DNA of 40,438 nucleotides from Gemmatimonadota bacterium (GTDB lineage Bacteria > Latescibacterota > UBA2968), in assembly GCA_009838845.1 (NCBI GenBank), contig VXRD01000084.1:1-40438 (forward strand). The letters are read 5' to 3'. Positions 6,383-38,289 of this stretch are shown piece after piece (the first letter of the stretch is position 1; each line of letters opens with the position of its first letter). The translations under genes and the position numbers were made by a program. The notes beneath the pieces are model-generated. The model had not been told where the DNA came from and searched no databases. It saw only the letters and a list, made by a program, of their open reading frames with translations.

Positions 6383-6702
6383 TTGCTCGCCCCTTCAAAA
6401 ATGTAAATCCCTTCAAACCTCTTCGCATCCACCAAAAAATACACCATCAACAAATTTCAGTCCACACAAAAAGACTGACATAGGCACAGGCACAAGTAAC
6501 ACTATCATTTATATAATTTTATATATATCTTGAAACAGCACTCTAATGCACAACGTCAGTAATAACAAACAAAACCTCTAGATCGCGGCTCAACACCATG
6601 CCGCGATGACGAGGGCTATCACCCGTATAACACTTTATGGGGCAGGCTTTCACAGTGAACTGGTCTGGATTGCGACCAGTTGTAAACCGTTCCACACTTC
6701 AC
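6383..6702. other. Gene-free divergent region with a fourth palindrome copy
   Basis: Separates the divergent small membrane gene and hen1. It contains an AT-rich tract (about 6508-6530) that could hold promoters, though I could not assign -35/-10 boxes. A copy of the TCGCGGC...GCCGCGA palindrome lies at 6576-6610. Confidence 0.5.
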
Positions 6703-8064
6703 ATGCTCTTAACCATCACAACCACATACAACCCCGCAACCGACCTGGGCTACCTGCTGCACAAACATCCTGGTCGCGCACAAACGTTTGACTTGTCTTT
6801 TGGTCGCGCACATGTATTTTATCCCGAAGCCACAGATAAAAAATGCACGGCTGCCCTATTGCTCGACCTCGACACCATTGGCCTCAAACGCCGTCGCCAA
6901 AACACCTTTGCATTTCGCGATTACGTCACAGATCGTCCCTATGTCGCCTCCTCGTTCACCAGCGTAGCCATCGCCCGCGTATTTGGCACCGCGCTCAAAG
7001 GCCAGTGCGCTGACCGACCTGACCTCGTCACCCGGCCCATCCCCTTGCGCGCGGAAATCCACGTTCTTCCTTGTCGCGGTGGCGACCAACTGCTCAACGA
7101 CCTGTTTCAGCCATTGGGATATAAAGTCACAGCCAAACCGCACCACCTCGATGAAAAATTCTCAGAATGGGGGTACAGCCCGTATTACACCGTCGCACTC
7201 GAAGCGAACATCCCACTAAAAGACCTGCTCACCCATCTCTACGTCCTCATCCCCGTACTCGACGACGACAAACACTACTTCGTCAGCCAATCAGAAATCG
7301 ACACCCTGATGCGCCGCGGCGAAGGCTGGTTATCAGACCATCCCAAACGCGACCTCATCATCGACCGATATCTCAGACACCAGCGCATCCTCACCCAAGA
7401 AGCCTATCGCCTTATGGATGAACAACCCTTAGAGCGCAATATCAAAGACAACGAACTCGTCGTCGAAAACAACCTCAGGCTGAACCAGCAACGGCACAAT
7501 GCCGTACTCAAAGAACTCGAAATCAGCGGCGCACAACGCGTACTCGATCTCGGCTGCGGTGAAGGCCACTTCACACAAGTCCTGTCAGAACGCCCCCAAT
7601 TCACCAAAATCCTCGGCATGGAAGTTTCACACCATGCCTTGAGCCGCGCTCACAAACGCCTCGAGCAACCCATACAGCGCAACCGCATCGAACTCATCCA
7701 CGGATCGCTATTCTACCGCGACACGCGCCTCGACGGTTATGACGCCGCAGTACTCTTAGAAGTCGTCGAACATCTCGACCCATCGCGACTACCTGTCTTC
7801 GAACGCGTCTTATTCGAATATGCCCATCCCAACACCGTCATCATCACCACCCCAAACGCCGACTTCAACACGCGCTGGGAATCTCTTCCCGCCGGACAAT
7901 TTCGCCATCCCGACCACCGATTCGAGTGGTCGCGCAAACAATTTCAACACTGGACACAAGGCATCGAAAAAAAATTCAACTACCACACAACAATCAAACC
8001 CATCGGTCCCGTAGATCCCGAAGCAGGTCCACCAACGCAAATGGCCGTATTTAATACAAAATAA
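6703..8064 (+). CDS. hen1: Hen1, RNA 3'-terminal ribose 2'-O-methyltransferase
   Basis: The start is ATG 6703, because the family begins MLLTITTTxxPATDLGYLLHKHP; an in-frame ATG at 6637 would add 22 unrelated residues. The 453-residue product has the N-terminal domain (about 1-245) known to activate the Pnkp ligase. Its C-terminal methyltransferase has the AdoMet loop LDLGCGEG (281-288) and the metal ligands E353, E356, H357 and H405, with the same spacing as Clostridium thermocellum Hen1. It methylates the 2'-OH at a broken RNA 3' end before sealing, protecting it from re-cleavage. Its stop lies 3 bases before the pnkp start, so the two are co-translated. Confidence 0.95.
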   Translation: MLLTITTTYNPATDLGYLLHKHPGRAQTFDLSFGRAHVFYPEATDKKCTAALLLDLDTIGLKRRRQNTFAFRDYVTDRPYVASSFTSVAIARVFGTALKGQCADRPDLVTRPIPLRAEIHVLPCRGGDQLLNDLFQPLGYKVTAKPHHLDEKFSEWGYSPYYTVALEANIPLKDLLTHLYVLIPVLDDDKHYFVSQSEIDTLMRRGEGWLSDHPKRDLIIDRYLRHQRILTQEAYRLMDEQPLERNIKDNELVVENNLRLNQQRHNAVLKELEISGAQRVLDLGCGEGHFTQVLSERPQFTKILGMEVSHHALSRAHKRLEQPIQRNRIELIHGSLFYRDTRLDGYDAAVLLEVVEHLDPSRLPVFERVLFEYAHPNTVIITTPNADFNTRWESLPAGQFRHPDHRFEWSRKQFQHWTQGIEKKFNYHTTIKPIGPVDPEAGPPTQMAVFNTK

Positions 8065-8067
8065 ACC

Positions 8068-10605
8068 ATGAACATCACACTCCCCGAAATCTCCCTCGTC
8101 GTCCTCATCGGCGTATCTGGCTCTGGTAAATCCACATTTGCCAAAACCCACTTCAAACCGACCGAAGTCCTCTCCTCCGACTACTTCCGCGGACTCATCA
8201 GCGACGACGAAACCGATCAGACCATCACAAAAGAGGCATTTGAAACCCTCCACTACGTGGCAGCCAAACGCCTCGCCAATTACAAACTCACCGTTATCGA
8301 CGCCACCAGCGTACAGGAAAGCGCCCGCAAACCCCTCGTCGCACTGGCCAAACAACATCACGTCTTCCCCATCGCCATCGTCCTCGACATGCCCGAAGAC
8401 CTCTGCCGCGAGCGCAACAAACACCGCCCAGACCGCAACTTTGCGCATCGCGTTATCGCACAACAACGCCATCAACTCCGCCGCTCGTTCAGACGCCTCA
8501 AACGCGAGGGATTTCGCCGCATCTACACCCTGCGCTCAGAAGAGGAAATCCAGCGCGTGTGTGTCACACGCGAAAAAGTTTGGCCCAACCGCCGCGACGA
8601 ACGCGGCCCCTTTGACATCATCGGCGATGTACACGGCTGTTACGACGAACTCCTCACGCTACTCGACAAACTCGGCTACGACATTCAGTCCAACCATATA
8701 GCACCACCGCCAGGGCGCAAAGCCATCTTTCTCGGCGACCTCGTAGATCGCGGTCCCAAAACACCCCAGGTGCTCGACCTCGTCATGCAAATGGTCGATT
8801 CCGGCGCCGCCCTCTGCATCCCCGGCAATCACGACACGCGCCTCGTTCGCGCGCTACAGGGCAAAAAGGTCAGACCCACTTATGGCCTTTCCGAAACCCT
8901 CGAACAGCTCGAATCATATCCCATTGAAGACCACAAACGCTATGCAAAATTCCTCGACAGCCTCGTCAGCCACTACATACTCGACGACGGCAACCTCATC
9001 GTTGCACACGCCGGAATGAAAGAAGAACTCGCCGGACGCACCTCGGGCACCGTGCGCGCCTTCGCGCTATATGGCGAAACCACGGGTGAAACCGACGAAT
9101 TTGGCCTGCCCATCCGCCTCAACTGGGCGGCGCGATATCGCGGCACAGCCACCGTCGTCTATGGACACACCCCCGTATCCGATCCCGAATGGCTCAACAA
9201 CACCATCAACATCGACACGGGCTGCGTCTATGGCGGCGCACTCACAGCCCTGCGCTATCCCGAAAAAGAATGCGTTTCCTTACCCGCGCTCAAAACATAT
9301 AGCAAACCCTCGCGTCCTCTTACCTCTCAGACCACGCGCTCCGCACAGCAAACGCACGACGACATGCTCGACATCGCCGACGTCAGCGGCAAACGCGCTG
9401 TAGATACCTTTCTCATCCCGCGCATCACCATCCGCGAAGAACACGCCACAGCCGCACTCGAAATCATGAGCCGCTACGCCATCGACCCCAAATGGCTGAT
9501 CTACCTGCCGCCGACCATGTCCCCATCAAAACCCAGTTCGCGTCCCAATATCCTCGAGCACCCCGATGAAGCTTATGCCTACTACCGGGAAAACAACATC
9601 ACTCAGGTCATAGCAGAAGAAAAACACATGGGATCCCGCGCCATCGTCATCCTGTGCAAAAATGACGAAGTTGCCCGCACGCGTTTTGGCCTATCCGAAC
9701 CCGCACCCGGCGCGTGCTATACCCGAACAGGCCGCTCCTTCTTTGACGATACAACCCTCGAAACCGCATTCCTTTCCCGTCTCCAAAATGCCGTCTCCAA
9801 AGCCGACCTCTGGAATGACCTCAACACCACATGGATAGCCCTCGACTGCGAACTCATGCCCTGGTCTGCGCGCGCACAACAACTATTGCAAGAACAATAC
9901 GCAGCTGTCGGTGCCTCTGCCCGTGCCTCGCTCAACGCCACCATCGAGGCCCTCAACGCCACCGCGACCAACAACATCGACGTCGCCGATTGGCTCGCCA
10001 AATACAGAGCCAGTTCACAGCGCATCGACCACTACATCCACGCGTACCGCGCCTACTGCTGGCCCGTTCACAATCTCACAGACCTCAAACTCGCGCCCTT
10101 TCACATCCTCGCCACAGAAGGAAGCGTTCACCACAACCATCCACACACCTATCACATGGAAACCCTCTCAAAACTGTGTGTGGCTGATCCCGAACTCCTC
10201 CATGCCACGTCATACCGCGTCGTCGATCTCAACGACACACAAAGTTGTGCCAACACCACTGCATGGTGGAAAGAAAAAACAGCACAGGGCAGCGAGGGCA
10301 TGGTCGTCAAACCCATAGATTTTATTGCGCAAAATAAAAAAGGCCGGCTGATCCAGCCCGCCATCAAATGCAGAGGACGCGAATACCTCCGCATCATCTA
10401 CGGTCCCGAATACACCACCCTCGAAAATCTCGAAAAATTGCGCTGGCGCAATGTCAAAACCAAGCAATCCCTCGCCCTGCGCGAATTTGCCCTGGGCCTC
10501 GAAGCCCTCAGCCGCTTCGTTCAAAACGAGCCCCTGCGCCGCATCCACGAATGCGTCTTTGGCGTCCTCGCGCTCGAAACAGAGCCCGTGGATCCGCGGC
10601 TGTAG
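8068..10605 (+). CDS. pnkp: Pnkp, polynucleotide kinase-phosphatase-ligase
   Basis: An 845-residue three-domain RNA-repair enzyme. The kinase has P-loop GVSGSGKST (15-23; K21 and S22) and SSDYFRG (D38, R41). The binuclear metallophosphatase has GDVHG (186-190), GDLVDRG (223-229) and GNHD (253-256). The C-terminal nucleotidyltransferase (ligase) has motif I EEKHMGSR with K519 as the AMP-accepting lysine. These positions match C. thermocellum Pnkp closely. It heals 5'-OH and 2',3'-cyclic-phosphate ends of cut RNA and seals them with Hen1, which is encoded just upstream. Likely targets, from studied homologs, are tRNAs cut by ribotoxins. No matching toxin is adjacent here. Confidence 0.97.
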   Translation: MNITLPEISLVVLIGVSGSGKSTFAKTHFKPTEVLSSDYFRGLISDDETDQTITKEAFETLHYVAAKRLANYKLTVIDATSVQESARKPLVALAKQHHVFPIAIVLDMPEDLCRERNKHRPDRNFAHRVIAQQRHQLRRSFRRLKREGFRRIYTLRSEEEIQRVCVTREKVWPNRRDERGPFDIIGDVHGCYDELLTLLDKLGYDIQSNHIAPPPGRKAIFLGDLVDRGPKTPQVLDLVMQMVDSGAALCIPGNHDTRLVRALQGKKVRPTYGLSETLEQLESYPIEDHKRYAKFLDSLVSHYILDDGNLIVAHAGMKEELAGRTSGTVRAFALYGETTGETDEFGLPIRLNWAARYRGTATVVYGHTPVSDPEWLNNTINIDTGCVYGGALTALRYPEKECVSLPALKTYSKPSRPLTSQTTRSAQQTHDDMLDIADVSGKRAVDTFLIPRITIREEHATAALEIMSRYAIDPKWLIYLPPTMSPSKPSSRPNILEHPDEAYAYYRENNITQVIAEEKHMGSRAIVILCKNDEVARTRFGLSEPAPGACYTRTGRSFFDDTTLETAFLSRLQNAVSKADLWNDLNTTWIALDCELMPWSARAQQLLQEQYAAVGASARASLNATIEALNATATNNIDVADWLAKYRASSQRIDHYIHAYRAYCWPVHNLTDLKLAPFHILATEGSVHHNHPHTYHMETLSKLCVADPELLHATSYRVVDLNDTQSCANTTAWWKEKTAQGSEGMVVKPIDFIAQNKKGRLIQPAIKCRGREYLRIIYGPEYTTLENLEKLRWRNVKTKQSLALREFALGLEALSRFVQNEPLRRIHECVFGVLALETEPVDPRL

Positions 10606-19044: not shown

Positions 19045-20754
19045 CTATCCCCCAAGCGCAGCCAAAAAATCTTCTACAGAAAGCGCATTGAGCACACCAT
19101 CAGCCGTCAGACCACCCTTTCTGGCAATCCCCAACCCAAAGCACATATCTTTCAGTCCCTCGGTACTGTGGGCATCTGTATTAATCGGAATTTGCACACC
19201 CTTCTCCCGCGCATAAGATAAAAATCGCCAATCCAACTCCAAACGCGCGGGATTGGCATTGATCTCAATTGCCGTACGCGCCTCGGCCGCAGCGTCAATC
19301 ACAGCCTTCATATCGAGCGGATAGCCCTCACGAGACAATAACAAACGGCCTGACGGATGCCCCAAAATATCGACATGGGGATTCTGAACCGCGCGAATCA
19401 ACCGATCCGTAGCCTCTGTTTCAGTCATTGAAAACTTCGAATGCACAGACGCAACCACCAGATCAAACTCGGATAAAAATTCATCGTCGAAATCCAACCC
19501 CCCATCGCTCAAAATATCCACCTCAATACCCTTCAACACCCGAATATCCTCCACCGCATCGTTGATCCGATCGATCTCATCCCACTGCAACCGAACGCGA
19601 TCTTCATTCAGCCCATTGGCATAAGCCGCGGCCTTGCTGTGATCGCAAATACCGATATACGCATAACCCAGCGCCTTTGCCGCCCGTGCCATATCCTCCA
19701 CACTATGCCGCCCATCGCTATACGTCGTATGCACATGAAGCGTACCCTTCAGATCGGATTGCGCGACCAACTCCGGCAACGATCCTTGTGCTGCGCGTTC
19801 AATCTCATCCCGTCCCTCGCGCAACTCAGGCGGAATATAATGCAAACCCAATGCACCAAATAACGCGCGCTCATCAGCACAAACCGCGTTTTCATCTCCC
19901 TTGAACAAACCGTATTCATTGAGCTTCATACCCCGGTCTTTTGCTCGCTGCCGCATCGCGGTATTGTGTTCTTTGCTCCCCGTAAAATGGTGCAATGCAT
20001 AGGGAAACGCCGCATCCGGCACAATCCTCAAATCCGCGCGCATACCCGAATCCAGCACAACACTCACCTTTATTTCGCCGCGACCCGTAACCTCTGCCAC
20101 ACCGGGATACGCGACAAAAACCTCGGCAAGCGCGCGCCCGTCTTTCGCGCTCGCAACAATATCCACATCCTTGCTCGTCTCCATACATCGCCGCACACTG
20201 CCCGCCACCGATAGACGCATCACCCCCGGTTGATCCGACAGATAAGCGCGCAACGCCTCTGCTTCATCCTGCGCCGTGCGGCTCAAAAAACGCCCGCGAT
20301 GTTGCTGCAAATAAGACACCCCATGCAAAATACTCTCAGCGGTCTTCTTCCCGAACCCGCGCAATTTTTCGACCTCACCCGCCTCGCAGGCTTTTGCCAG
20401 CGCATCCACATCGGCAATACCCAATTGCTCGTAAATAGACCGCACCCGCTTCGCGCCCAAACCGGGCACCTCAATCATCTCCAATAGCCCTTCGGGCAGA
20501 GCGGAACGCAAATCGCCCATACCCGGCAACTGCCCCGTATCAATAAGTACTGCAATATTTGCCGCCATCTTCGCGCCAATACCGCGCACAGATTCCAATT
20601 CACCGCGCGCGCTCAAATCCGAAGCGGACTCTTGCAACAGTTCAATCTGCCGCGCTGCATTGACATAAGACCGAATGCGAAACGCATTCTCGCCATTCAG
20701 TTCCATCAGCGTAGTCATCTCTTCCAAAGCCGCGGCAATATCTTTATTATCCAT
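19045..20754 (-). CDS. polX: DNA polymerase/3'-5' exonuclease PolX
   Basis: A 569-residue protein, standard length for bacterial PolX. The N-terminal helix-hairpin-helix units are around 57-60 (GIGAK), 97-100 (GLGAK) and 133-136 (GFGKK). The palm motif GSVRR (185-189) leads to the catalytic DVD (196-198). The C-terminal PHP domain starts at LHVHTTYSDG (339) with ICDHS, GIEVDI, ASVHS, ILGHP and NTDAH metal-binding motifs. It fills short gaps and trims 3' ends in base-excision or break repair. It stands alone on the minus strand, divergent from the carbohydrate cluster at 20865. Confidence 0.95.
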   Translation of the reverse strand: MDNKDIAAALEEMTTLMELNGENAFRIRSYVNAARQIELLQESASDLSARGELESVRGIGAKMAANIAVLIDTGQLPGMGDLRSALPEGLLEMIEVPGLGAKRVRSIYEQLGIADVDALAKACEAGEVEKLRGFGKKTAESILHGVSYLQQHRGRFLSRTAQDEAEALRAYLSDQPGVMRLSVAGSVRRCMETSKDVDIVASAKDGRALAEVFVAYPGVAEVTGRGEIKVSVVLDSGMRADLRIVPDAAFPYALHHFTGSKEHNTAMRQRAKDRGMKLNEYGLFKGDENAVCADERALFGALGLHYIPPELREGRDEIERAAQGSLPELVAQSDLKGTLHVHTTYSDGRHSVEDMARAAKALGYAYIGICDHSKAAAYANGLNEDRVRLQWDEIDRINDAVEDIRVLKGIEVDILSDGGLDFDDEFLSEFDLVVASVHSKFSMTETEATDRLIRAVQNPHVDILGHPSGRLLLSREGYPLDMKAVIDAAAEARTAIEINANPARLELDWRFLSYAREKGVQIPINTDAHSTEGLKDMCFGLGIARKGGLTADGVLNALSVEDFLAALGG

Positions 20755-20864
20755 TCAAAACCACCGGGAAATGTAGTGGACATTTGGCAATCTACATGGT
20801 TATTTTAACTTCAATCGCCTGCGTCAAAGTTTGGAGAATATAGATACAGAATGGAGCTAAGTCA

Positions 20865-21893
20865 ATGAACCAAACCACAAAAATCGCCATCGTCGGACTG
20901 GGTCGCATCGGCTGGCGATTTCACTTTCAGCAAGCCCTCTCATCCAACCAATTTGAACTCACCGCTGTTGTCGATCCCCTGCCCGAACGCTTATCCGAAG
21001 CACGCGCAGCAGCGGGTTGTGAAACCCACACCGATTTTGAATCTCTCTGGTCCGGCCCATTGCCCGACGTGGTCGCCATTGCCACACCGACCACATTGCA
21101 CGAAGACATGACCATTCGCGCCCTCAACGAAGGTTGTCACGTCATCCTCGAAAAACCCATGACCACCTCCCTCGCCTCGGCAGATCGCATGATCGCCCAG
21201 GCCCAAAAAAATAACCGCCGCATCTTTCTCTATCAACCCCACCGCCTCACACCCGAAACGCAAACCGCGCGAGAAATTATTCAAAGCGGCATGCTGGGAC
21301 CTATCTACTTCATACACCGGGGCGTATATCGCTATGTGCGCCGAAACGACTGGCAGAGCTTGCGAAAAAACGGCGGCGGCATGCTCAACAACTACGGCGC
21401 GCATTACCTCGACCAACTCATCTATCTCTCGGACGACTCGGCAATCACAGAAGTCGATTGCAAACGCTGGGCAATAGCCACCCGGGGGGATGCCGACGAC
21501 GTAGTCAAAGCCTGGGTGAAAAAAGAATCTGGACAACTCTTAGACGTACAGATCAATCAGGCCACTGCCCATATCATGCCCCTCTGGCATATCTGTGGAA
21601 AATACGGCACAGCCATTCGCGAGGACAACGTATTCAAAGTACGATATTACGACCCCGCAGAAGCACCCCCGCTAAACATCGTCGAAGGCGCAGCCCCCGA
21701 ACGCAGCTACGACAACCGGGACCGACTGCCCTGGCGGGAAGAAGACATCCCCATTACCCGGGACAAACAGCGCGACTTCTACGCCAACATCTACGACGTA
21801 ATCGTCAACAACGCCACGCCCTATATACGCATAGAAGAATCGCGCGAACTCATGCGCGTCATGGACTTATGTCGCCAAAGTTCCAAATTCTGA
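20865..21893 (+). CDS. Gfo/Idh/MocA family oxidoreductase
   Basis: A 342-residue NAD(P)-dependent sugar dehydrogenase. The Rossmann loop is IVGLGRIG near the N-terminus and the conserved EKP motif is present (VILEKPMTT). The C-terminal domain has NNYGAHYLDQLIYL, where the His is in the usual catalytic place. Substrates in the family are pyranoses, inositols and uronates. GGAG precedes ATG 20865. It is the first gene of a six-gene same-strand cluster, so it probably oxidises a sugar released by the later enzymes. Substrate not determined. Confidence 0.9.
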   Translation: MNQTTKIAIVGLGRIGWRFHFQQALSSNQFELTAVVDPLPERLSEARAAAGCETHTDFESLWSGPLPDVVAIATPTTLHEDMTIRALNEGCHVILEKPMTTSLASADRMIAQAQKNNRRIFLYQPHRLTPETQTAREIIQSGMLGPIYFIHRGVYRYVRRNDWQSLRKNGGGMLNNYGAHYLDQLIYLSDDSAITEVDCKRWAIATRGDADDVVKAWVKKESGQLLDVQINQATAHIMPLWHICGKYGTAIREDNVFKVRYYDPAEAPPLNIVEGAAPERSYDNRDRLPWREEDIPITRDKQRDFYANIYDVIVNNATPYIRIEESRELMRVMDLCRQSSKF

Positions 21894-21975
21894 TCAGGAT
21901 GTGCCGGATTAAAGGATATACAGGATAAAATCCGTAGATTGAACCAACGATGCAATCAAACTATCAGGAGACACG

Positions 21976-22830
21976 ATGAAACTTTCACTCACCTCTGTCA
22001 TGCTTCCCCGATGGGATTTGGAAACCACATTCAAAAAATTGGAAAAACACGGTTACGAAGGCATTGAACTCCGCTGCCGATACAATCCCGAAGACCCCAA
22101 TGCCGAATTGTTCTATTGGGGACGCCACCTCACGGATGTCAGCCCGGACAATATCCTGGACAAGGCAGCGCAGATACGCGACCTCTCAAACCAAACCGGC
22201 GTGCGCGTTTGCACCCTCGCATCCAATTTCACTTATGATCGGACTGATATCATCGAAAAAATATTCAAAGGCGCGCGTGCAATCGACTCCGATAACCCAC
22301 CCCTCATTCGCGTTGGTGCCCAGAGCCACGACCGCCAGGCGCCCTATATTCCCCAATTCCTCAAAGCGCGTATCGGTTTTGCCGACCTCGTTGAAATGGC
22401 GCGCGATTACGGCGTCAAAATCATCTATGAAATTCACGTTGGCACCATCGCTGTGAGCGCATCTCGCACCATCGCCCTCTTAGAAAATCTCGATCCCAAT
22501 CACATCGGTGCCATCTGGGATGTGCCCAACATGATCCGCGTGGGACTTGAAGACAGCAAAATGGGCCTCGAACTACTCGGCCCGTATCTCGCCCATGTAC
22601 ACATCGGCAATGCCACACCCGTGCAAACCGAGCGCGACGAGACCGGAAGCATGCAATGGGAATGGGATTTTAGCGACCTGCGAGAAGGCATGGCAGATAT
22701 TCCCCAAATTATCCAGGACCTCAAAGACGTCGGATATCGGGGTTATATCTCACTCGAAGAATTTGGTCCCGGCGATGACGAAGAAAAAATCAGTTCCCAG
22801 GGCAACTATTTGAAATCCCTCATCAATTAA
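21976..22830 (+). CDS. Sugar phosphate isomerase/epimerase (TIM barrel)
   Basis: A 284-residue xylose-isomerase-like barrel. Visible metal-site segments are KIIYEIHVG, GAIWDVPN (the family often has WDxGH), AHVHIGN and YISLEEFG with the last Glu. The family includes D-tagatose and ketose 3-epimerases and keto-sugar isomerases. AGGAG precedes ATG 21976, 82 bases after the oxidoreductase. An oxidoreductase plus such an isomerase is a frequent pair in inositol or uncommon-sugar degradation. Confidence 0.88.
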   Translation: MKLSLTSVMLPRWDLETTFKKLEKHGYEGIELRCRYNPEDPNAELFYWGRHLTDVSPDNILDKAAQIRDLSNQTGVRVCTLASNFTYDRTDIIEKIFKGARAIDSDNPPLIRVGAQSHDRQAPYIPQFLKARIGFADLVEMARDYGVKIIYEIHVGTIAVSASRTIALLENLDPNHIGAIWDVPNMIRVGLEDSKMGLELLGPYLAHVHIGNATPVQTERDETGSMQWEWDFSDLREGMADIPQIIQDLKDVGYRGYISLEEFGPGDDEEKISSQGNYLKSLIN

Positions 22831-22843
22831 CAAGGAGCATACT

Positions 22844-23734
22844 ATGGTCCCCCTCATCAGCAACCTCGCCTCTGGCCCGCTCGGCGCGTGTCAATTGCCC
22901 CGCACATGGTGGAAAGTCCTCACGCGCAACGCCGGTATTTTAGACGACGAATATCCCGACATGACGGATAATGGCCTCGACCCCCGCGTACTGCGCGCAT
23001 TAAACCTGGATATCGACACCACATTGGCCTACTTGCGCGAAAACATGCCCTCATACCTCAATTTTGAAGCCTGGATACTCGAACAGAGAGGCGACGACTT
23101 CTGGGGCTTTGAACAGCAAGACGCCATCGTCCGATGGAACGCGTTTATCCGCGCACGGCGACACCGCGGGGAAAAAATCGAAGAAACGTACACAGACACG
23201 GGCCTGCCTCGGGATGCGGGCATTGATTCTGCAACCGTACTCAACTGCCTTCAGGATATGCAGTTATTTTACAAGCGCGACCTGTCCGAACTGCGCGGAA
23301 ACATCGTCCCCCTCATCGCCACAATCGACTTCGGACCCCTCGGCGTGCGCCAATTGCCCCGCACCTGGTACAAAATCCTCCTCCGCGCAAAAGGCCTGCT
23401 ACACCCCGACTATCCCGACATGACAGAGAGCGGCCTGGACCCCCGCGTACTGCGCGCATTAAATCTGGGCATCGACGCCACATTAAACCACATCCGCACA
23501 AACCTCCCATCCTATCTCGAATTTGAAGGCTGGGTACTCGAACAGTGCGGCGGTCAAATTCCCGTACAAGCCGTTGACGAATGGAACGACTACTTGTGCA
23601 ATCGCATCCACAACGACGCCAAACGCGCAGAAATCCGCGCAACCGTGGGATGTGGCGACATATCCTCAGCCGTCGTACTCAACCACATCGAAGACTGGCA
23701 TCTGGCACATCAGTGGCTCTTAAGTGCCGTGTGA
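22844..23734 (+). CDS. Tandem DUF5069 protein
   Basis: A 296-residue protein made of two full copies (about 1-147 and 153-296) of a DUF5069-like unit. Both carry the same landmarks: (S/F)GPLGxxQLPRTWxK, YPDMTxxGLDPRVLRALNL and a PSYLxFExWxLEQ helix. DUF5069 proteins are usually single-copy, about 150 residues and of unknown function. No signal peptide or catalytic motif is obvious; conserved aromatic and Arg residues suggest ligand binding. It lies 13 bases after the isomerase and 14 bases before the beta-propeller gene, with a strong AAGGAG, so it is part of the carbohydrate operon. Confidence 0.85.
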   Translation: MVPLISNLASGPLGACQLPRTWWKVLTRNAGILDDEYPDMTDNGLDPRVLRALNLDIDTTLAYLRENMPSYLNFEAWILEQRGDDFWGFEQQDAIVRWNAFIRARRHRGEKIEETYTDTGLPRDAGIDSATVLNCLQDMQLFYKRDLSELRGNIVPLIATIDFGPLGVRQLPRTWYKILLRAKGLLHPDYPDMTESGLDPRVLRALNLGIDATLNHIRTNLPSYLEFEGWVLEQCGGQIPVQAVDEWNDYLCNRIHNDAKRAEIRATVGCGDISSAVVLNHIEDWHLAHQWLLSAV

Positions 23735-23748
23735 AAAGGAGAAAAACA

Positions 23749-24858
23749 ATGTCTATCGAACTCGGCGAAATGTCCAATGGCGTGGCACTCACACAGGTGA
23801 CCACAGACGAACTTGAAAAATCCAACATCTACTGCGAACTGCCCTACTGCTCTGCTGACTCGCGTGTCTTTGTCTATGAACAAAAAAATTCAGACACCGC
23901 GCCCAACACCACCGAATACATCGCCTGCGAATTTGGCACATGGAAAACCGAAATAATCGGTTGCGGTCTGGGCGGACCTGGCATGACCCACAGCGGCATC
24001 TTCTTTTATAAGCGCGTCATTCCCAACAAATGCCAGGAACTTGTGCGCGTTGACCTGCGCACGGGCAAACAGCGCGTCATCCATGAATTTCCCGAAGACC
24101 TTCAAACGCGCGGCCTGGGCACCCTATCGCCCGATGAACGCTATTACGCCTATGGCGTCACCATCAGTTATCACCCCAAAATGTTTGGCATTGAACTCGT
24201 CGATCTCGAAAAGGGAACGCGAGAAATCATCAACACCGACCCCGACATCTGCAATCCACACACGCAATTTGAACCCACAGAAGGCAAACAAATTATGGTT
24301 CAGCACAACCGGGGCTGCGAATTTAAACCCGATGGCACCCGCCTCAAACTCGTCGGCGACGAAGGCGCCACCGAATACCTCGTCGATATACCCGACGGCA
24401 AAGTCACGCGCCTTCAGGTCGGACTACCCCATACGCCGAGCATCACCGGACACGAAGCCTGGATCGCGGGCGCAAATGAAATCCTCCTATCCGTCCGCGC
24501 AGAAGGTGAGTACGCACCCGACAAGGGCAACCTCGTCAAAGTATCGGCAAACAAACCCCCAGAGCGCGTCGGCACGCCGGGCTATCGCTTCAACCACGTC
24601 GGCACCTCTCCGTGTGGTCAATACTTCTTCTGCGACGACTGGCAGGGCGCCAGCAAACTCATCGTCGGCAATATCCAGACCGGCAAAACCGCGGTCGTAT
24701 GCGAAGCGCACACATCCATGAGCACCGAGCAAAACACACACGGGCATCCCTATCTCTCTCCCGACCTCAAATGGCTCGTCTTCAACTCGGACCGCTCGGG
24801 CCATCCCCAAATCCACGTCGCATCCGTGCCTTCTGACCTCATTGCTCGGTTGAATTAA
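23749..24858 (+). CDS. Oligogalacturonate lyase-like beta-propeller protein
   Basis: ATG 23749 after AAAAGGAG starts [14 protein letters not shown]; the open frame upstream only overlaps the previous gene. The 369-residue product is a WD40/TolB-like propeller with [25 protein letters not shown] and a C-terminal [21 protein letters not shown] His cluster ([12 protein letters not shown]) matches the metal site of oligogalacturonate lyases, which cleave unsaturated galacturonate dimers by beta-elimination. There is no signal peptide, which fits cytoplasmic end-processing. With sulfatases next door, sulfated uronate oligosaccharides are plausible. A non-enzymatic propeller is the alternative. Confidence 0.72.
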
Positions 24859-24883
24859 AAAACCACAACCAAAAGGAGCGCAC

Positions 24884-26287
24884 ATGAGCGAAAGACCCAA
24901 TATTCTATTTATCATGACCGACGACCATGCATCGCATGCCATGAGTTGTTATAACAGTCGGATTAACGAAACGCCCAATCTGGATCGCATAGCAGAAGGC
25001 GGCATGCGCTTTAACAACTGCTTTTGCACCAACTCGATCTGCGCGCCGAGTCGGGCGGTAATCTTGACCGGCACGTACAATCACGTCAACGGCGTCACCA
25101 CATTGCGCACAAACCTGGATGGACGACAGGTCACATTTCCCAAACTCCTGCAAGCCGCGGGCTATCAAACCGCAATGGTAGGCAAATGGCATCTCGGGCA
25201 CGGCGGACACAATGACCCCACCGGATTTGACTACTGGAACGTACTCCCCGGCCAAGGCGCGTATCACAACCCCATGATGTACGACATGGGCAAAGAAGTC
25301 CACTACGAGGGATACACCACAGACATCATAACCGACCTCGCGCTGGACTGGCTAAAAGACCGCGACAAAAACAGACCCTTCATGCTCATGTATCACCACA
25401 AAGCACCCCATCGTCCCTGGGAGCCAGACGACAAACACGCGGACATGTACGAAGACATCGACATCCCCGAACCCGAAACACTGTGGGACGATTACAGCAA
25501 CCGCGCCACAGCGGCATCGCAGGCGGAAATGCGCGTCAACCGGGACCTGAACCCCCGCGATCTGAAACAGCCCGTACCCGAAGGCTTGACCCCCGAAGAA
25601 GACATGAAATGGAAATACCAGCGCTACATCAAAGACTACTTGCGCTGCGTAGCATCCGTCGATGACAATGTCGGCCGCGTATTGGACTACCTGGACGAAG
25701 AAGAACTAACCGACAACACCATCGTCGTCTATACATCGGACCAGGGCTTTTACCTGGGTGACCACGGCTGGTACGACAAGCGATTCATGTACGAAGAATC
25801 CCTCCGCATGCCATTCCTCATCCGGTACCCCAAAGAAATCAAAGCGGGTAGCGTTTGTGACGACATGATCCTCAACGTAGATTTCGCATCCACATTCCTG
25901 GACTATGCCGGAATAAATATCCCCAGCCATTTTCAAGGACACAGCATGCGCCCCCTATTAAACGGCGACCGCCCCGCCTACTGGCGCGCCTCGATGTATT
26001 ACCGGTACTGGATGCACCTCAACGGACACAATATCTACGCACACTACGGAGTCAGAACACACCGGCACAAACTCATCTACTATTACGCCGACGGATGTGG
26101 GCAGGAAGGCGCCTCGGACGACGCCCGAGAACCAGAATGGGAATTATTTGATCTGGACAAAGACCCGTATGAATTGAACAGCGTCTATCACAATCCCGAA
26201 TACGCAGAAATAGTCGCCGAACTAAAAGACGAACTCCACCGCTTGCAGGACGAAGTGGGGGATGAGCGATACGAGAAAGACGTGTAA
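24884..26287 (+). CDS. Sulfatase (N-acetylglucosamine-6-sulfatase-like)
   Basis: A 467-residue sulfatase with C53 in CAPSR (CxPxR formylglycine motif), N-terminal metal ligands [14 protein letters not shown], and the second metal group [18 protein letters not shown]. The C-terminal [17 protein letters not shown] is typical of glucosamine/iduronate-type sulfatases. It removes sulfate esters from sugars. No signal peptide is seen, so substrates would be imported oligosaccharides. AAAAGGAG precedes ATG 24884, 26 bases after the propeller gene. Confidence 0.94.
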
Positions 26288-26299
26288 GAGGAACCTTTA

Positions 26300-27646
26300 A
26301 TGCCCAATGTCGTATTCATCATGACCGACAACCAGGGGGCATGGACCCTGGGCTGTTATGGCAACCCGGACATACAAACCCCCAACATCGACAGACTTGC
26401 AGATGAAGGGATTCGGTTCTCAAACGCCTATTGCGTAAACTCGGTCTGCTCGCCCAGCCGCGCCACATTCATGACCGGACTGATCCCCTCTCAGCACGGC
26501 GTACACTGCTACCTCGGCGGAGAAAAACCAGACGCTCAGATGGGACCAGACGCGTACTGCACCATTCGCGAATTTGCAAACCTCCCCCGCGTCATGGCAG
26601 ATGCGGGCTATGTATGCGGACTGAGCGGAAAGTGGCACCTCGGAGACAGCCTGCGGCCCCAGGAGGGATTTTCATACTGGTTTACCCGCCCGAAGGGACA
26701 CACCACGACATTTTACGACGATGAATGGATCTGGCAAAACCGGGTATATACCGAACCTCGATACACAACCGAAGCCATAACAGAACACGCCCTAAAATTC
26801 CTGCGACAAAACCACCACCAGCCATTCTTCCTCTACGTAGCGTACAACGGTCCCTATGGCCTGGGAACAAGCATGCTGGAAACACACCTCAACCGACATA
26901 CCGAATATTACGCGGACAAAGAACTGCCGAGCTTCCCCAGAGAGCCAGTGCATCCGTGGCTGCGCAGCAACCGGGACATGATCAACAACCCGATAAGCAT
27001 TCGCGGATATGCCGCAGCGGTCAGCGGCGTAGATGATGGGGTAGGCGAAATAACAAACGCCTTAAAAGAATACGGATTGGAAGAAGACACACTGGTAATT
27101 TTCACAGCAGATCAGGGCTGGTGTGGCGGACATCACGGAATGTGGGGCATGGGAGACCACTCCCGACCCCTGCATACTTATGAAGAAACCATCCACATCC
27201 CGCTGATATTCCGCCAGCCCGGACGGATACCGGCAGGCAGAGTATTTGAAGGGCGAACATGCAATTACGATTTCTTCCCCTCCGTACTGGACCATCTGGA
27301 ATTGCGGGAACGGATCGCCGACAACCCCAATCTCCCCGGCACAAGTTATGCCCCAGCACTTATAGGAAAAGAAATGACCTGGAATAATGAAATATTCCAC
27401 GAATTTGAAAACACGCGCCTGGTGCGAAATGACCGCTGGAAATACACCTGGCGTCACCCAGATGGCCCGGATGAGCTATACGATATGCAGGCCGACCCGG
27501 GAGAACGCAACAACCTGGCGAACCGCTCCCACGCAACAGTCATCAACGAATGTCGCAACCGCATCCAGAACTTCTTTAACCAGTATGCAGACCCCCAGTA
27601 CGACCTGTGGCGCGGGGGACGCTCCAAAGCGGGGCGAATCGGATAA
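26300..27646 (+). CDS. Sulfatase
   Basis: A 448-residue sulfatase with C50 in CSPSR, metal ligands MTDNQGAW at the N-terminus and FTADQGWCGGHHG later, GKWHLGD, and the usual C-terminal ELYDMQADPGERNNLA. It differs clearly from its neighbour, so the two probably act on sulfates at different positions of one substrate. It starts 13 bases after the previous stop with GAGG before ATG 26300 and closes the cluster; a bidirectional terminator follows. Confidence 0.93.
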   Translation: MPNVVFIMTDNQGAWTLGCYGNPDIQTPNIDRLADEGIRFSNAYCVNSVCSPSRATFMTGLIPSQHGVHCYLGGEKPDAQMGPDAYCTIREFANLPRVMADAGYVCGLSGKWHLGDSLRPQEGFSYWFTRPKGHTTTFYDDEWIWQNRVYTEPRYTTEAITEHALKFLRQNHHQPFFLYVAYNGPYGLGTSMLETHLNRHTEYYADKELPSFPREPVHPWLRSNRDMINNPISIRGYAAAVSGVDDGVGEITNALKEYGLEEDTLVIFTADQGWCGGHHGMWGMGDHSRPLHTYEETIHIPLIFRQPGRIPAGRVFEGRTCNYDFFPSVLDHLELRERIADNPNLPGTSYAPALIGKEMTWNNEIFHEFENTRLVRNDRWKYTWRHPDGPDELYDMQADPGERNNLANRSHATVINECRNRIQNFFNQYADPQYDLWRGGRSKAGRIG

Positions 27647-27661
27647 GGGTGAAGCACCACA

Positions 27662-27692
27662 AAAAAAGACACCGATATATGGTGTCTTTTTT
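27662..27692. terminator. Bidirectional terminator between convergent genes
   Basis: Stem GACACC/GGTGTC extended by A-run and T-run (27662-27673 with 27681-27692), loop GATATAT. It serves the sulfatase on the plus strand and the RND gene on the minus strand. Confidence 0.85.
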
Positions 27693-27711
27693 GTATCAAC
27701 CGTAAAACGCC

Positions 27712-30700
27712 TTAGTCGGCCGCCTGCGCGTCCATTCCTCCAGTGGGTCGGGCTCGGCGGAAAGCCACCACCGCGATCTGTCGCAATATCCCCCGCAGAT
27801 CGTCCAGAAAGGTGTAGAAAAGCGGTACCACAAAAAGAGTGAGAAGCGTAGAACAGAGCAGCCCACCCATCATGGTGCGACCCAGAGGCGCGTAAGGTGT
27901 CCCCAGCATAGAACTGTTCCCCAGTGCCATGGGCATCAAACCAAACACCGTGGTAAACGTCGTCATCAAAATCGGCCGGAACCGATTAAACCCGGCTTCC
28001 AGAATGGCCTCGTCACGTGCCATCCCCTCCGCGCGAAGTCGATTAATCATATCCACCAGCACAATGGCATTGTTCACCACTACCCCAATCAATACAATAA
28101 GTCCCACCTGCGCCATCGGATTCATCGCTGTATCCCACAAGTAGAGCGTCCAATAGACTCCCAGAAAAGAAAACGGGACAGCCAGTAACACTGAAAAGGG
28201 CAGGATAATGGATTCGAAGAGCACCCCCATGAGCAAAAATACGAAGGTGATGGCCAGAATGATTGCAAAATTCATCATGTCATTTTCTTCTCGATACCGC
28301 TGTCCCTCCGTACCCCGATCCCAAGAATACCCATAGGGAAGCGACATGCCGTCCATCACCCGATCAATATCTGTGAAGAGCGTCTTTAGATCATCCTCCA
28401 TGGTAAAACACTTCAGCCTAATTCGCATCTTTCCGTCAATCCGCCGAATGGTCCCTGGCCCTTCGGTCACCTTGAATGAAGCAAAGGCGGACAGGGGAAT
28501 ACTCTGCCCGTCCCTGGAAGTAAACATATAATTTTTCAACTGCGTCACCTGCTGCCGGTCCACCTCTCGCAACCGGAGCCGAACTTCCACTTCCCGGTCG
28601 TCCGACTTGTAACGCGGCAGAAAGGTCCCCCGAAGTTGAAATCCGATACTCTGCCCCACTTCCTGCGCATTAATCCCGTATTTTTTAGCCCGATCCCGAT
28701 TGATCACGACCTGCACCTCCGGTTCGGCCCGCTCCAGATCGTTTTCGATGTTCACAATCTCAGGGATGGTCTGTAGCCGACGTTCCGCCTCCTCCACCAG
28801 GGGGATCAGCCCCTCCTGATCTTCACCGTAGAGAAACACCTTGATATTGGCATCGGTGTTCACCGCCTGTGAATTGTTGGTATTCACAGACCTTCGGACG
28901 CCCACATGCTTGGGGAAGTTTTCCTTCATATCTTTGATCACTTCCTTTTTGCTCATGCGCTGGTCCAGAGGAAAACCAATTTTCGCCCTCGCATCTCGAT
29001 AAATCGTGTACCACCATTCCTCGGCGTCCTGATGATGGAGAAAAGCCTGGATACGCAGACCCGTTTTCCAGTAACTCAGCCGGATCGTTCGAACCCCATA
29101 GAGTTCCCGTCTGGCTTCAAAATAAGCCTCGTATTCGGCCCCCAGCTTGCTGATATCCTCAAAGGTGAAAAAAGGCGGCGGATAGGCCCGAACATAGACC
29201 TCGTTGAGGTTAAATCCGCCCGCGTTGGCCGTCTTCACCTTTTCCAGCGGATAAAGCATGGTGGCCATCATCCCCACCACAATCAAGGTCGTATCTCGCC
29301 GGTGTGTCACGGTCCAGGATAACATGCGGTGATAAGTGTCTCGCATCCAGCGAATCACCCTCAGGTCTGCCTTAATATCGCGCCCGCCAAATCGCTTGGC
29401 CGCAAGTGGGATAAACAACAAGGCGACAAACAAAGACCCGACAAGCGCCACCACCACGGGCATTCCGATGCGGGCGAGTTGGAAGGTGAGGTTCCTGCTT
29501 CCACCCATTAAGATCAGGGGCAAAAACACGACCACGGTGGTTAAGGTGGCCATTGTAATAGCCAGCCCCACCTCACTGGCCCCACCAATAGACGCTTCGT
29601 AGGGCGCGTCACCCTTTGCCCGCCTCCGGTAGATATTTTCAACAATCACAATCGCATTATCGACCACCATCCCCACCCCCACCATCAGCCCCATCATCGT
29701 GAAGAGATTGAGCGTCCATCCCACAAAATACAACGCTGTCGTCGTGATCATCAAACAAAGCGGAATAGCCAGCGTGATCAACGCGGTCATGCGCATAGAC
29801 CGAAGGAATAATAGCAGCACCAGGGCGGCGAAAAATCCGCCCCAGAGGCCGGTGTTCCGCAGATTGCGGATCGACTCTCCGACCACCTTGCCCTGGTTAA
29901 AAAAAGCGTCAAATTCGATATCCGTTCTGCTCTCGATCTGGTCTAAAGCGGCCTGGACCCGGTTGCACACATCCACCAAATTTTCGCCGGGTTCCCGAAA
30001 CACGCCAAGATTGATGGCGGGCTTGCCGTCGATGCGCTGATACCACTGCCGATCGGGCACATCGTAAGCCACTCGGGCCACATCTTTTAAGCGAACCTCA
30101 CTGTCCTGGGTCGGGATCAGGATATTTTCTATCTCCGACAGGCTGTGGTATTTCGCCATGGAGCGGACGAAAAATTTCTTGCCACCTTCCTGGACATACC
30201 CTCCCGTGAGCGAGAAATTGTCTGATCGCAGCCCCATCACCAGTTGGAAGGGCTGCACCCCTCGCGTCACCATCTTTTCCACATCGATCTCCACCAGTAC
30301 CTCGTTGCGATTCACCCCCCACAACTGCACCTGAGCTACCCCTTCCAGTCGCTCCAGGGGCCTTTTGATGTGGAGATCGGAAAAATAATACGGATCTTCT
30401 ATCCCATCGGGCAGTGCCACCCCCACCCACATCACCTCCATGTCGGTATCTGGATTCCACTTCCACACAAAAGTGTGATCCCGCACCTCCTCGGGCAAAT
30501 CGATCTTGGCACGATCCAGGCGATCCACCAGTTGATTATACGCCAATTGTATATTTGCATCTTCCCGCAGCCAGACCCCCATCCACAGGCCCCACTGAGA
30601 ACTTGCGAAACTTTCAAAGCCTCTGACCCCCTTCACTGTGCGGATGTGCTCCTCAACGGGCCTTCGAATTTGCCGGTCAATCTCCTGGGGCGCCAGGCCC

Positions 30701-36730: not shown

Positions 36731-37108
36731 ATGCACAAATATCTATTGTCCACCCCGATGATTCTGCTTTTGCTCATTGGGTCCGCCTCTGCACAAACGG
36801 TTAATTTTTCTCTACGGGGCCTCGACGGCAATACATATAGTGCTTCTGACTATCGCGGCAAAGTGCTCGTGCTTGCGGTCATCGGTTGGAACTGACCGAC
36901 CTGCAGGGCCGCGGGTTCGGCCCTCGAAACATTATGGCAAAATTATAACGATAACCCCAATGTTGCCATGCTGGGTCTTGATAGCTGGAATGGTAGTCGT
37001 GCTCAGGTTGAGGGTTTTCGCGCGAATGGGGGCATCACCTTAACGCGAGTGGTTCTGCTCCGTCCACGTATGATCGTCTCGTTGTTGTTGGCACCGATGG
37101 GACTGTGA
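36731..37108 (+). CDS. Secreted thioredoxin-like selenoprotein candidate (UxxC)
   Basis: ATG 36731 opens a signal peptide (MHKYLLSTPMILLLLIGSAS, then AQ) and a TlpA/redoxin fold: VNFSLRGLDGNTYSASDYRG, KVLVLAVIGWN. Codon 55 (36893-36895) is TGA exactly where the first redox Cys is expected, followed by Pro-Thr-Cys (U55-P-T-C58). The same frame continues as normal redoxin (SALETLWQNY, VAMLGLDSWNGS, VEGFRANGG). A bSECIS-like hairpin follows the TGA. Read with Sec, this frame ends at 37106-37108, but after about residue 103 it leaves the family; the proper continuation (STYDRLVVVGTDGTVKWVSPG) is in the frame of the next entry. So it has a frameshift or small deletion near 37028-37042. It would act as a periplasmic thiol-selenol oxidoreductase. 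The alternative is a decaying gene with two lesions. Confidence 0.68.
36905..36924 (+). promoter_or_regulatory. Bacterial SECIS-like hairpin
   Basis: A perfect 7-bp GC-rich stem AGGGCCG/CGGCCCT (36905-36911 with 36918-36924) with loop CGGGTT. The loop begins 16 bases after the TGA and has G at its second position, which agrees with the general bacterial SECIS rule (loop 16-37 bases downstream, G early in the loop). Confidence 0.62.
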
Positions 37109-38289
37109 AATGGGTATCCCCAGGTATAATTTCAAACGCCCTTTCTACTGCGGAAGCCAAGGTTAAAGAACTGTTGAAGAAAGAACCCGACCCACAGGTG
37201 ACAATTACGGCGGATTCTGAATCCATCACCGAAGGGGTATCTGCGAGATTCACGATCAGAGCGAACCTTCTACCAACCACTGCATTGAGAGTGGGGGTGA
37301 GTGTCAGTGAAACTGGCAATGTCATCAGCTCATCGCCCTCGCAAGTCACTATAAATGCCGATAATACGACCGCTACACTGACAGTGAATACCATTGATGA
37401 TCAAGCATATGAGCCACATAGCTACGTGACAGCACAACTCCAACAAGGAACGGGCTATACAATCGGCACACCACACTATGCCCGCATCACTGTCAATGAC
37501 AATGATGAACCAGCGGATCCACCAGCAGATCCACCAGCAGATCCACCAGCAGATCCACCACCGCCACCACCGCCACCACCGCCACCACCATCAATACCGA
37601 CCGAACCTCAAGTTCCTGATCGCACTGTCATCCGAGATACTCTAAATATCGGGGGTATTCCAAGGACAGATCTATTCTCCCTTGACCTCAATGATAGACC
37701 GGGAAATCAGGCTGCTGACACTCTTAATATCGCCCCAGGACAAGATTTTTCCATCCAGATTTACTGTCACGATACTCAAAAGGGAGACAGGATTCGCACC
37801 CTGATCGAATACGACCCATCCCAACTCATCTTCAAGAGGTTTAAGGCCGATGGCATTACGATAGCCTCTTCCTATTCAAAAAGTCAGGAAAAGGTTGGGC
37901 AGGTGACAGTCACTGCCTATATCTTAAATCAAAGTTCGGGATTTTTGGGGAATACCCTCTTCATGACCACGGATACTTTCTCTGGATCTCAAATAAAAAT
38001 CATACAAGCTGAATTCACGATCAGCGACCCATTCAGTGACCAAATATCTCGTATCTCCTACGCCTCAGTCGAGGAAACCGCCGAAATACATCTGATGAAA
38101 GAACCAACTGAGGTAGAAAAATCCGACTTTAATGGCGATGGCGTCATTGACACCCTTGACTTCATACTGTTTAGTAATGCGTGGGGGACGACCGATCCAA
38201 AATATGACCTTGACGGAGATGGCACTGTCAATTACGGTGATTTTGTGATATTCGCGCGGAATTTTGGCAAAACAGTCGATGGAGGATAA
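37105..38289 (+). CDS. Redoxin tail plus Calx-beta, cohesin-like and dockerin-like modules
   Basis: Begins within the end of the redoxin domain (the frame is open from 36994; GTG at 37105 is only the first possible start) and is most likely the 3' part of the 36731 gene. Order: redoxin end (WVSPGII ... VKELLKK), Calx-beta-like domain (about 33-133; ITEGVSARFTIRANL, ATLTVNTIDDQAYE), ADPP repeats and polyproline (about 137-162), cohesin-like beta domain (about 180-330; TLIEYDPSQLIFKRF). Two dockerin repeats close it: DFNGDGVIDTLDFILFSNAWG and DLDGDGTVNYGDFVIFARNFG, each with a full calcium loop. Without its own signal peptide it needs the upstream part for export. Confidence 0.7.
   Translation: MKWVSPGIISNALSTAEAKVKELLKKEPDPQVTITADSESITEGVSARFTIRANLLPTTALRVGVSVSETGNVISSSPSQVTINADNTTATLTVNTIDDQAYEPHSYVTAQLQQGTGYTIGTPHYARITVNDNDEPADPPADPPADPPADPPPPPPPPPPPPSIPTEPQVPDRTVIRDTLNIGGIPRTDLFSLDLNDRPGNQAADTLNIAPGQDFSIQIYCHDTQKGDRIRTLIEYDPSQLIFKRFKADGITIASSYSKSQEKVGQVTVTAYILNQSSGFLGNTLFMTTDTFSGSQIKIIQAEFTISDPFSDQISRISYASVEETAEIHLMKEPTEVEKSDFNGDGVIDTLDFILFSNAWGTTDPKYDLDGDGTVNYGDFVIFARNFGKTVDGG
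37513..37590 (+). repeat. ADPP minisatellite and proline tract
   Basis: Four 12-base units (GCRGATCCACCA, coding Ala-Asp-Pro-Pro) at 37513-37560, then three 9-base units CCGCCACCA plus one more CCA coding ten prolines. It forms an extended linker between the Calx-beta and cohesin-like domains and is likely variable in length. Confidence 0.85.

What the first reader, a model, noticed from the sequence alone, without database searches (positions are those of the whole stretch)
22844..23734. Full-length tandem duplication of DUF5069 inside a sulfatase operon
Two complete DUF5069-like units in one chain, tightly coupled to an isomerase, a lyase-like propeller and two sulfatases. The context gives a functional hint for an uncharacterised family: handling of a sulfated sugar or uronate intermediate. 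The two halves differ enough to suggest divided roles.
Basis: partly seen in the sequence, partly recalled or inferred. Interest (0 to 1): 0.58.

Follow-up and report, generated by a model that had tools for sequence, protein, structure and literature searches.

The report
Doubled DUF5069-like protein, sugar-acid operon
An uncultured bacterium carries a protein made of two copies of a poorly understood small domain; the doubling is real, old and shared by many relatives, and its gene neighbours, together with a separate natural fusion of this domain family to a gluconate-phosphorylating enzyme, hint at a role in breaking down sugar acids rather than sulfated sugars.

Summary
ORF 22844-23734 (296 aa) is two full, 50%-identical repeats. 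They are DUF5069-like: same predicted fold as the solved DUF5069 protein 3OMD (Z 13.1), but below Pfam's cut-off (24.4 vs 27 bits). One old duplication is shared by 40 of 47 genomes of this Latescibacterota class, and by Poribacteria and Opitutales. In part of the genus a stretch of repeat 1 looks overwritten from repeat 2.

Sulfatases are a poor clue: this genome has at least 151, and 6 of 54 two-repeat loci have one within 5 kb. Steadier partners are a Gfo/Idh dehydrogenase, an isomerase-like TIM barrel and an oligogalacturonate-lyase-like propeller; other genera show aldo/keto reductase, DHDPS-type aldolase and others. In Verrucomicrobiota canonical DUF5069 is fused to (9) or directly beside (10) gluconokinase, of 387 genomes searched. 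In 13 Poribacterial/Opitutales loci no carbohydrate partner was recognised. Both repeats keep the same 27 near-invariant residues, against divided roles. Best reading: a cytosolic sugar-acid (uronate/aldonate) accessory protein with two equivalent sites; activity unknown.

The parts
20865..21893 (+). Gfo/Idh/MocA oxidoreductase, 342 aa; first gene of the co-directional run
   Evidence: PF01408 99.6 bits, cut-off 24; present in 10 of 11 same-genus loci, not in L066
21976..22830 (+). Xylose-isomerase-like TIM barrel (AP_endonuc_2), 284 aa
   Evidence: PF01261 78.9 bits, cut-off 31.1; no match in L060, L061, L062, L065, L066
22832..22837 (+). AAGGAG ribosome-binding-site-like sequence before the two-repeat gene
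   Evidence: read directly from the sequence
22844..23734 (+). Two-repeat DUF5069-like protein, 296 aa
22844..23281 (+). Repeat 1 (residues 1-146)
   Evidence: alignment of halves; not recognised by PF16798 on its own
22961..23014 (+). Stretch of repeat 1 (residues 40-57) that resembles repeat 2 in window and L058-L062 but not in L063-L067: probable gene conversion
23288..23731 (+). Repeat 2 (residues 149-296)
   Evidence: closer to single-domain paralogues
23749..24858 (+). Oligogalacturonate-lyase-like beta-propeller, 369 aa (start taken from homologues; the open frame begins at 23581)
   Evidence: PF14583 29.6 bits, cut-off 30; 3pe7 2.9e-7 by profile; Foldseek 3c5m 6.6e-17; VIA Z 27.4 over 334 residues; Q328, H331, H333 invariant in 9 sequences
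24884..26287 (+). Sulfatase 1, 467 aa, CAPSR motif, no obvious signal peptide by eye
   Evidence: PF00884 213.5 bits; motif read
26300..27646 (+). Sulfatase 2, 448 aa, CSPSR motif, no obvious signal peptide by eye
   Evidence: PF00884 169.4 bits; motif read

Best explanation
The gene encodes a cytosolic protein of two DUF5069-like helical repeats that arose by one old intragenic duplication. It works as an accessory protein of sugar-acid (uronate/aldonate) breakdown: each repeat forms its own site that binds a sugar-acid carboxylate and most likely carries out, or assists, a small conversion of the free acid between the lyase step (propeller) and the isomerase/dehydrogenase steps. Shown: two repeats, shared residue set in both, old duplication, gene neighbours, gluconokinase fusions of the parent family. 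Inferred: that the shared residues form a site, that its ligand is a sugar acid, that it catalyses rather than only binds, that it is cytosolic (no signal peptide seen by eye). The sulfatases are a separable module and not part of its function.
For: Two repeats, 50% identical, model pLDDT 93.3. 27 positions at least 90% conserved as the same residue in both repeats of 34 proteins, among them R20/173, W22/175, K24/177, Y37/190, D46/199, Y71/224, E75/228, W77/230, N99/248, R105/254, H107/256, K111/260, N134/280, D138/284: two like sites, rich in positive charge. The propeller next door is oligogalacturonate-lyase-like and such genes are rare in the genome (5 matches, two of them in one gene), so this link is not cheap. 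It lies directly downstream also in L066, L067, L068, L076. Upstream partners in other genera: aldo/keto reductase with an enolase-superfamily enzyme, DHDPS-type aldolase with a heparinase-like lyase, Gfo/Idh. Canonical DUF5069 is fused to GntK-type gluconokinase (TIGR01313 167.3, 167.9, 154.8 bits, cut-off 113.75): 9 fused and 10 adjacent cases among 387 Verrucomicrobiota genomes.
Against: In Poribacteria the two-repeat gene often stands alone between unrelated genes on the other strand (MoCF_biosynth, BtpA, with MatE near by; sulfotransferase, DegT). Gfo/Idh (113 matches), TIM-barrel (62) and sulfatase (at least 151) genes are so common in this genome that adjacency to them is weak evidence. 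The gluconokinase link concerns canonical DUF5069, not this divergent subfamily; 14 of 19 of those loci share a penicillin-amidase neighbour, so it may be one inherited event. Direct partners in six loci are CoA-transferase III or MlrC, not plainly sugar enzymes.
Confidence: 0.42

Rival explanations
1. A non-catalytic sugar-acid sensor or regulatory/chaperone domain: the repeats bind a metabolite and modulate a partner enzyme (as a domain fused to gluconokinase could do), with no chemistry of their own.
For: Small all-helical domain; fused N-terminally to a complete kinase domain; partner enzymes vary from genus to genus while the gene is kept, as expected of a helper; multi-copy arrays of two or three domains fit binding at least as well as catalysis.
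Against: The residue set is strikingly polar and invariant in both repeats, more than binding alone usually needs; Poribacterial orthologues have no enzyme partner directly upstream.
Confidence: 0.3
2. A housekeeping or stress-related function unrelated to carbohydrates; the gene drops in behind whichever operon is nearby, and sugar genes are simply abundant in these genomes.
For: Poribacterial and Opitutales loci without recognised carbohydrate partners (0 of 13 directly upstream); canonical DUF5069 beside cytochrome oxidase, LytB, SIR2/DUF790, APH genes; very high density of sugar genes in this genome.
Against: In 35 of 41 Latescibacterota loci a same-strand gene ends within 165 bp upstream, and in 28 of the 41 it is of a carbohydrate type; partners of different kinds in different genera point the same way; gluconokinase fusions.
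Confidence: 0.22
3. One reading: handling of a sulfated sugar or uronate made by the two sulfatases, with the two repeats specialised for different roles.
For: Two sulfatases follow closely in the window and L064; a sulfatase lies 12-15 bp upstream in L054.
Against: Sulfatase within 5 kb in 6 of 54 loci, against a chance level of up to about 29% in this genome (151 matches x 11 kb / 5.75 Mb, my upper bound); in L058, L059, L062, L063 other genes lie between; both repeats keep the same residues and have probably exchanged sequence.
Confidence: 0.06

Closest known systems
DUF5069 (Pfam PF16798), solved example PDB 3OMD (Leptospirillum rubarum, function unknown)
   Same: Helical fold (VIA Z 13.1, 128 residues, repeat 2), LPRxxxK...Y...D motif order, weak profile hit
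   Different: Two repeats in one chain; below the Pfam cut-off; extra conserved Y..FExW, R.H...K and LN..(E/Q)DW positions; 19% identity to 3OMD
Tandem DUF5069 arrays of the same class (2 domains in the genus, 3 elsewhere; e.g. G000:C12, L205, L209, L210)
   Same: Repeated DUF5069 domains in one chain, class-wide
   Different: Their repeats are canonical (well over the cut-off); presumably a separate duplication (not put in the tree); other neighbours (SIR2, DUF790)
DUF5069-gluconokinase fusions of Verrucomicrobiota (L200, L204, L208, L215, L216)
   Same: DUF5069 domain tied to a sugar-acid enzyme
   Different: One canonical DUF5069 domain, covalently joined to a kinase; no gluconokinase was found near this gene or in any Latescibacterota locus held
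Oligogalacturonate lyase, CAZy PL22 (3C5M, 3PE7), for the neighbour at 23749-24858
   Same: Fold (Z 27.4 over 334 residues), Q-x-x-H-x-H aligned to the lyase's
   Different: 16-18% identity; PF14583 29.6 bits against a cut-off of 30

Membership tests
DUF5069 (PF16798) | Profile score at or over the curated cut-off (27 bits) | tested here: not met
   24.4 bits whole protein; 14.3 repeat 2 alone; none for repeat 1 alone. So it is described as DUF5069-like, a remote relative, not a formal member
DUF5069 (PF16798) | Same fold as a solved member | tested here: met
   3OMD Z 13.1, rmsd 2.5, 128 aligned, well above the next row at 3.8; Foldseek prob 1.00 but E 0.058; 3OMD shown to be canonical DUF5069
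DUF5069 (PF16798) | Core motif R-x3-K ... Y ... D | tested here: met
   Profile alignment to 3OMD; conserved in both repeats
Two-repeat subfamily described here | Two repeats, repeat 2 monophyletic across phyla | tested here: met
   34 of 34 repeat-2 sequences form one clade, support 94; repeat 1 not recovered as a clade (supports 14-46)
Oligogalacturonate lyase PL22 / PF14583 (neighbour gene) | Profile score over the cut-off (30 bits) | tested here: not met
   29.6 bits
Oligogalacturonate lyase PL22 / PF14583 (neighbour gene) | Propeller fold of the family | tested here: met
   The best PDB entries are the two oligogalacturonate lyases by Foldseek and VIA; model pLDDT only 76
Oligogalacturonate lyase PL22 / PF14583 (neighbour gene) | Metal ligands (three His, one Gln; ligand list recalled) | tested here: inconclusive
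   Q328, H331, H333 align and are invariant in 9 sequences; the fourth (perhaps H283) was not aligned
Sulfatase PF00884 (neighbours) | Profile over cut-off and C-x-P-S-R motif | tested here: met
   213.5 and 169.4 bits; CAPSR and CSPSR in the translations
Sugar-acid enzyme or binding protein | Catalytic activity or ligand | not testable with these tools
   needs purified protein

The most novel reading that the evidence does not exclude
DUF5069 is an unrecognised all-helical sugar-acid enzyme or binding domain found in several phyla; Verrucomicrobiota welded it to gluconokinase, while Latescibacterota doubled it and put it behind lyase, isomerase, reductase and aldolase genes. The two-repeat form then holds two equivalent sites, kept alike partly by gene conversion.
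Probability: 0.3. Interest if true: 0.62.

Novelty: new variant of a known kind. Interest (0 to 1): 0.4.

Why it matters
DUF5069 has no known function that I could find, and no paper in the held library mentions it by name or accession. The gluconokinase fusions and the lyase-linked two-repeat form give a concrete, cheap hypothesis (sugar-acid ligand) that a ligand screen could settle. It also shows that the sulfatase context, the most eye-catching part of the window, is the least informative one.

Tried and rejected
Sulfatase operon as the functional clue: rejected. Divided roles of the repeats: not supported. Phage or defence link: no relative in viral contigs, no PADLOC match, no credible viral fold match. 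Other folds: apart from 3OMD, the rows are low and scattered; this does not exclude a distant known fold. Promoter and terminator scan of 20700-27800 was at chance level (7 against 5.9; 10 against 8.8), so operon limits are not shown. Literature: no paper for DUF5069, PF16798, or gluconokinase + domain of unknown function + fusion; the search for 3OMD or Leptospirillum rubarum gave 59 papers, and none of the 10 listed looked to be about the structure (listing only). I first took the gene beside DUF5069-gluconokinase for a penicillin-binding protein; Pfam says penicillin amidase. Only five candidates a genome were scored, so those counts are lower bounds; one of the nine fused cases (G442) is listed with a stop inside. 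The gene finder used in my scripts (longest open frames) misplaces genes in GC-rich Verrucomicrobiota, so the neighbour tables were used only where Pfam or tblastn confirmed them. In one search many loci have flanks under 5 kb on one side, so 6 of 54 is a lower bound. For alignment A2 and the tree I used 34 of the two-repeat proteins (window and 33 of the 51 loci), leaving out near-duplicates and those with frameshifts or doubtful ends.

Full report
Observation. The open frame 22844-23734 (+) encodes 296 aa with a clear ribosome-binding-like AAGGAG and starts 13 bp after the preceding gene. Its halves align at 50% identity over 141 columns, E 4e-44. AlphaFold2 with an alignment of 34 sequences gives two all-helical repeats at pLDDT 93.3 and pTM 0.90. 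The DUF5069 name is correct in kind but remote: Pfam PF16798 gives 24.4 bits against a cut-off of 27, and repeat 1 alone gives nothing. The fold settles the relation: 3OMD, a Leptospirillum protein of unknown function, matches repeat 2 at Z 13.1 over 128 residues, with the next row at 3.8 (Foldseek E 0.058); the two-repeat profile finds it by sequence at E 0.011; and a canonical DUF5069 protein matches it at 1.8e-27.

Where it occurs. The genome is a Latescibacterota MAG by the titles of its closest relatives (some relatives are titled Gemmatimonadota). Among 60 relatives plus the own genome, two-repeat proteins occur in 40 of the 47 genomes of the class (my count; two of them split into two pieces, one running off a contig), and in 0 of 13 genomes of other classes of the phylum. 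A scan of the species-genome collection gave 51 loci, including ten titled Poribacteria and three titled Opitutales, Opitutia or Puniceicoccaceae. Viral contigs gave none. The own genome also has single-domain relatives and canonical DUF5069 genes, one of them a two-domain array; three-domain arrays are widespread in the class. Doubling of DUF5069 is thus a habit of this class rather than a peculiarity of the window.

History. In a maximum-likelihood tree of 86 repeats (141 columns) all 34 repeat-2 sequences form one clade (support 94), the single-domain paralogues form another (94) and join repeat 2 (69); repeat 1 forms a weakly supported grade near the outgroup (14-46). The simplest reading is one duplication before these lineages' copies parted. 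In the window and L058-L062 residues 40-57 of repeat 1 read almost like repeat 2 of the same protein, at the DNA level too, while L063-L067 keep a different stretch there: probable gene conversion within the gene. It raises the likeness of the halves in this window.

Are the halves specialised? Across 34 proteins, 27 positions are at least 90% conserved as the same residue in both repeats, including R20/173, W22/175, K24/177, Y37/190, D46/199, Y71/224, E75/228, W77/230, N99/248, R105/254, H107/256, K111/260, N134/280 and D138/284; 12 positions are so conserved in repeat 1 only and 8 in repeat 2 only. This looks like two equivalent sites with small differences, not divided roles.

Neighbours in the window. 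Gfo/Idh/MocA, a xylose-isomerase-like TIM barrel, the two-repeat gene, a propeller and two sulfatases run on the + strand. The propeller is oligogalacturonate-lyase-like: PF14583 29.6 bits (cut-off 30), best PDB sequence matches 3pe7 and 3c5m (2.9e-7, 8.2e-6), best folds the same two (Foldseek 6.6e-17; VIA Z 27.4 over 334 residues). Its Q328-x-x-H331-x-H333 aligns with the lyase's Q-x-x-H-x-H; that these are metal ligands is recalled. PF14583 gives only five matches in this genome, two of them in one gene, so this adjacency is meaningful.

Neighbours elsewhere. In the genus the stable core is Gfo/Idh, TIM barrel, two-repeat gene, propeller; the TIM barrel has no match in L060, L061, L062, L065 and L066. 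The sulfatase pair directly follows the propeller only in the window and L064; in L058, L059 and L060 it is displaced by other genes. Over all 54 loci examined a sulfatase lies within 5 kb in 6 (window, L042, L054, L060, L064, L107). This genome has at least 151 sulfatase matches, so up to about 29% of random sites would have one within 5 kb. In 35 of 41 Latescibacterota loci (window, L038-L077) a same-strand open frame ends within 165 bp upstream. By blastp, phmmer and, for representatives, Pfam the upstream gene is a TIM barrel in 9, aldo/keto reductase in 8, Gfo/Idh in 5, DHDPS family in 4, CoA-transferase III in 3, MlrC in 3, heparinase II/III in 1, sulfatase in 1, and a short frame at a contig edge in 1. 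The other six are L039 (contig edge), L041, L044, L047, L057 and L066. These loci are related, so they are not 41 independent cases, and 113 Gfo/Idh and 62 TIM-barrel matches in this genome make such neighbours common. Against the link, none of 13 Poribacterial/Opitutales loci has a recognised carbohydrate enzyme directly upstream; two whose neighbours I examined with Pfam lie between MoCF_biosynth and BtpA genes, or between sulfotransferase and DegT genes.

Canonical DUF5069. PF16798 occurs in 42 of 144 Verrucomicrobiota genomes searched, up to nine matches each. One locus examined with Pfam lies beside cytochrome oxidase and LytB genes; in the own class others lie beside SIR2, DUF790, APH or BNR genes. 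Looking for fusions I fetched long frames and found a canonical DUF5069 domain followed in the same frame by a GntK/IdnK-type gluconokinase: L200, L204, L208 score 167.3, 167.9, 154.8 bits on TIGR01313 (cut-off 113.75) and are over the DUF5069 cut-off; L215 and L216 are further cases. Searching 387 Verrucomicrobiota genomes with one fusion gave 88 with any match at E 1e-15 or better, nine with a match along the whole fusion (one listed with a stop inside) and ten with the two as adjacent same-strand genes (checked). In 14 of these 19 loci the next gene is a penicillin amidase, so much of this is one inherited association, with fused and split forms at the same place. No gluconokinase was found in any Latescibacterota locus held.

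Reading. The common thread is sugar acids: an oligogalacturonate-lyase-like neighbour, uronate-lyase-like, aldolase-like and enolase-superfamily partners, and a gluconokinase fusion in the parent family. A paper on Latescibacteria single-cell genomes, of which I saw passages only, describes sulfatases (14 and 3 in two genomes) and channelling of uronic acids to KDG (PMC4454575). I propose that each repeat binds a sugar-acid carboxylate and probably acts on it; a pure sensor or helper role is the main rival. Neither is shown. The rest, two repeats, one old duplication, remote DUF5069 kinship and weak sulfatase link, is well supported.

Noticed in passing
L200, L204, L208, L215, L216: Canonical DUF5069 fused to gluconokinase in nine, and directly beside it in ten, of 387 Verrucomicrobiota genomes searched.
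   Followed up: yes
window 22961-23014: Probable gene conversion from repeat 2 into repeat 1 in part of the genus.
   Followed up: partly
G000 (own genome): At least 151 sulfatase, 113 Gfo/Idh/MocA and 62 xylose-isomerase-like matches in 5.75 Mb.
   Followed up: no
window 6637-10605: Hen1 and Pnkp RNA-repair genes side by side (PF12623, PF16542), followed by an overlapping 471-aa frame without a Pfam match.
   Followed up: no
L205, L209, L210; G000:C12: Class-wide proteins with three (in this genus two) canonical DUF5069 domains; neighbours SIR2 and DUF790 in the own genome.
   Followed up: partly
L060, L061, L062, L065: The isomerase-like gene between Gfo/Idh and the two-repeat gene is missing in four same-genus genomes.
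   Followed up: no
L070 (G010): The two-repeat gene is split in two frames, from a frameshift or an assembly error.
   Followed up: no
window 37105-38289: Protein with a dockerin type I domain (PF00404 28.9 bits).
   Followed up: no
L186: A single-domain paralogue of the gene follows a subtilase with a HEAT repeat, in a run with a sulfatase and a PhyH dioxygenase.
   Followed up: no
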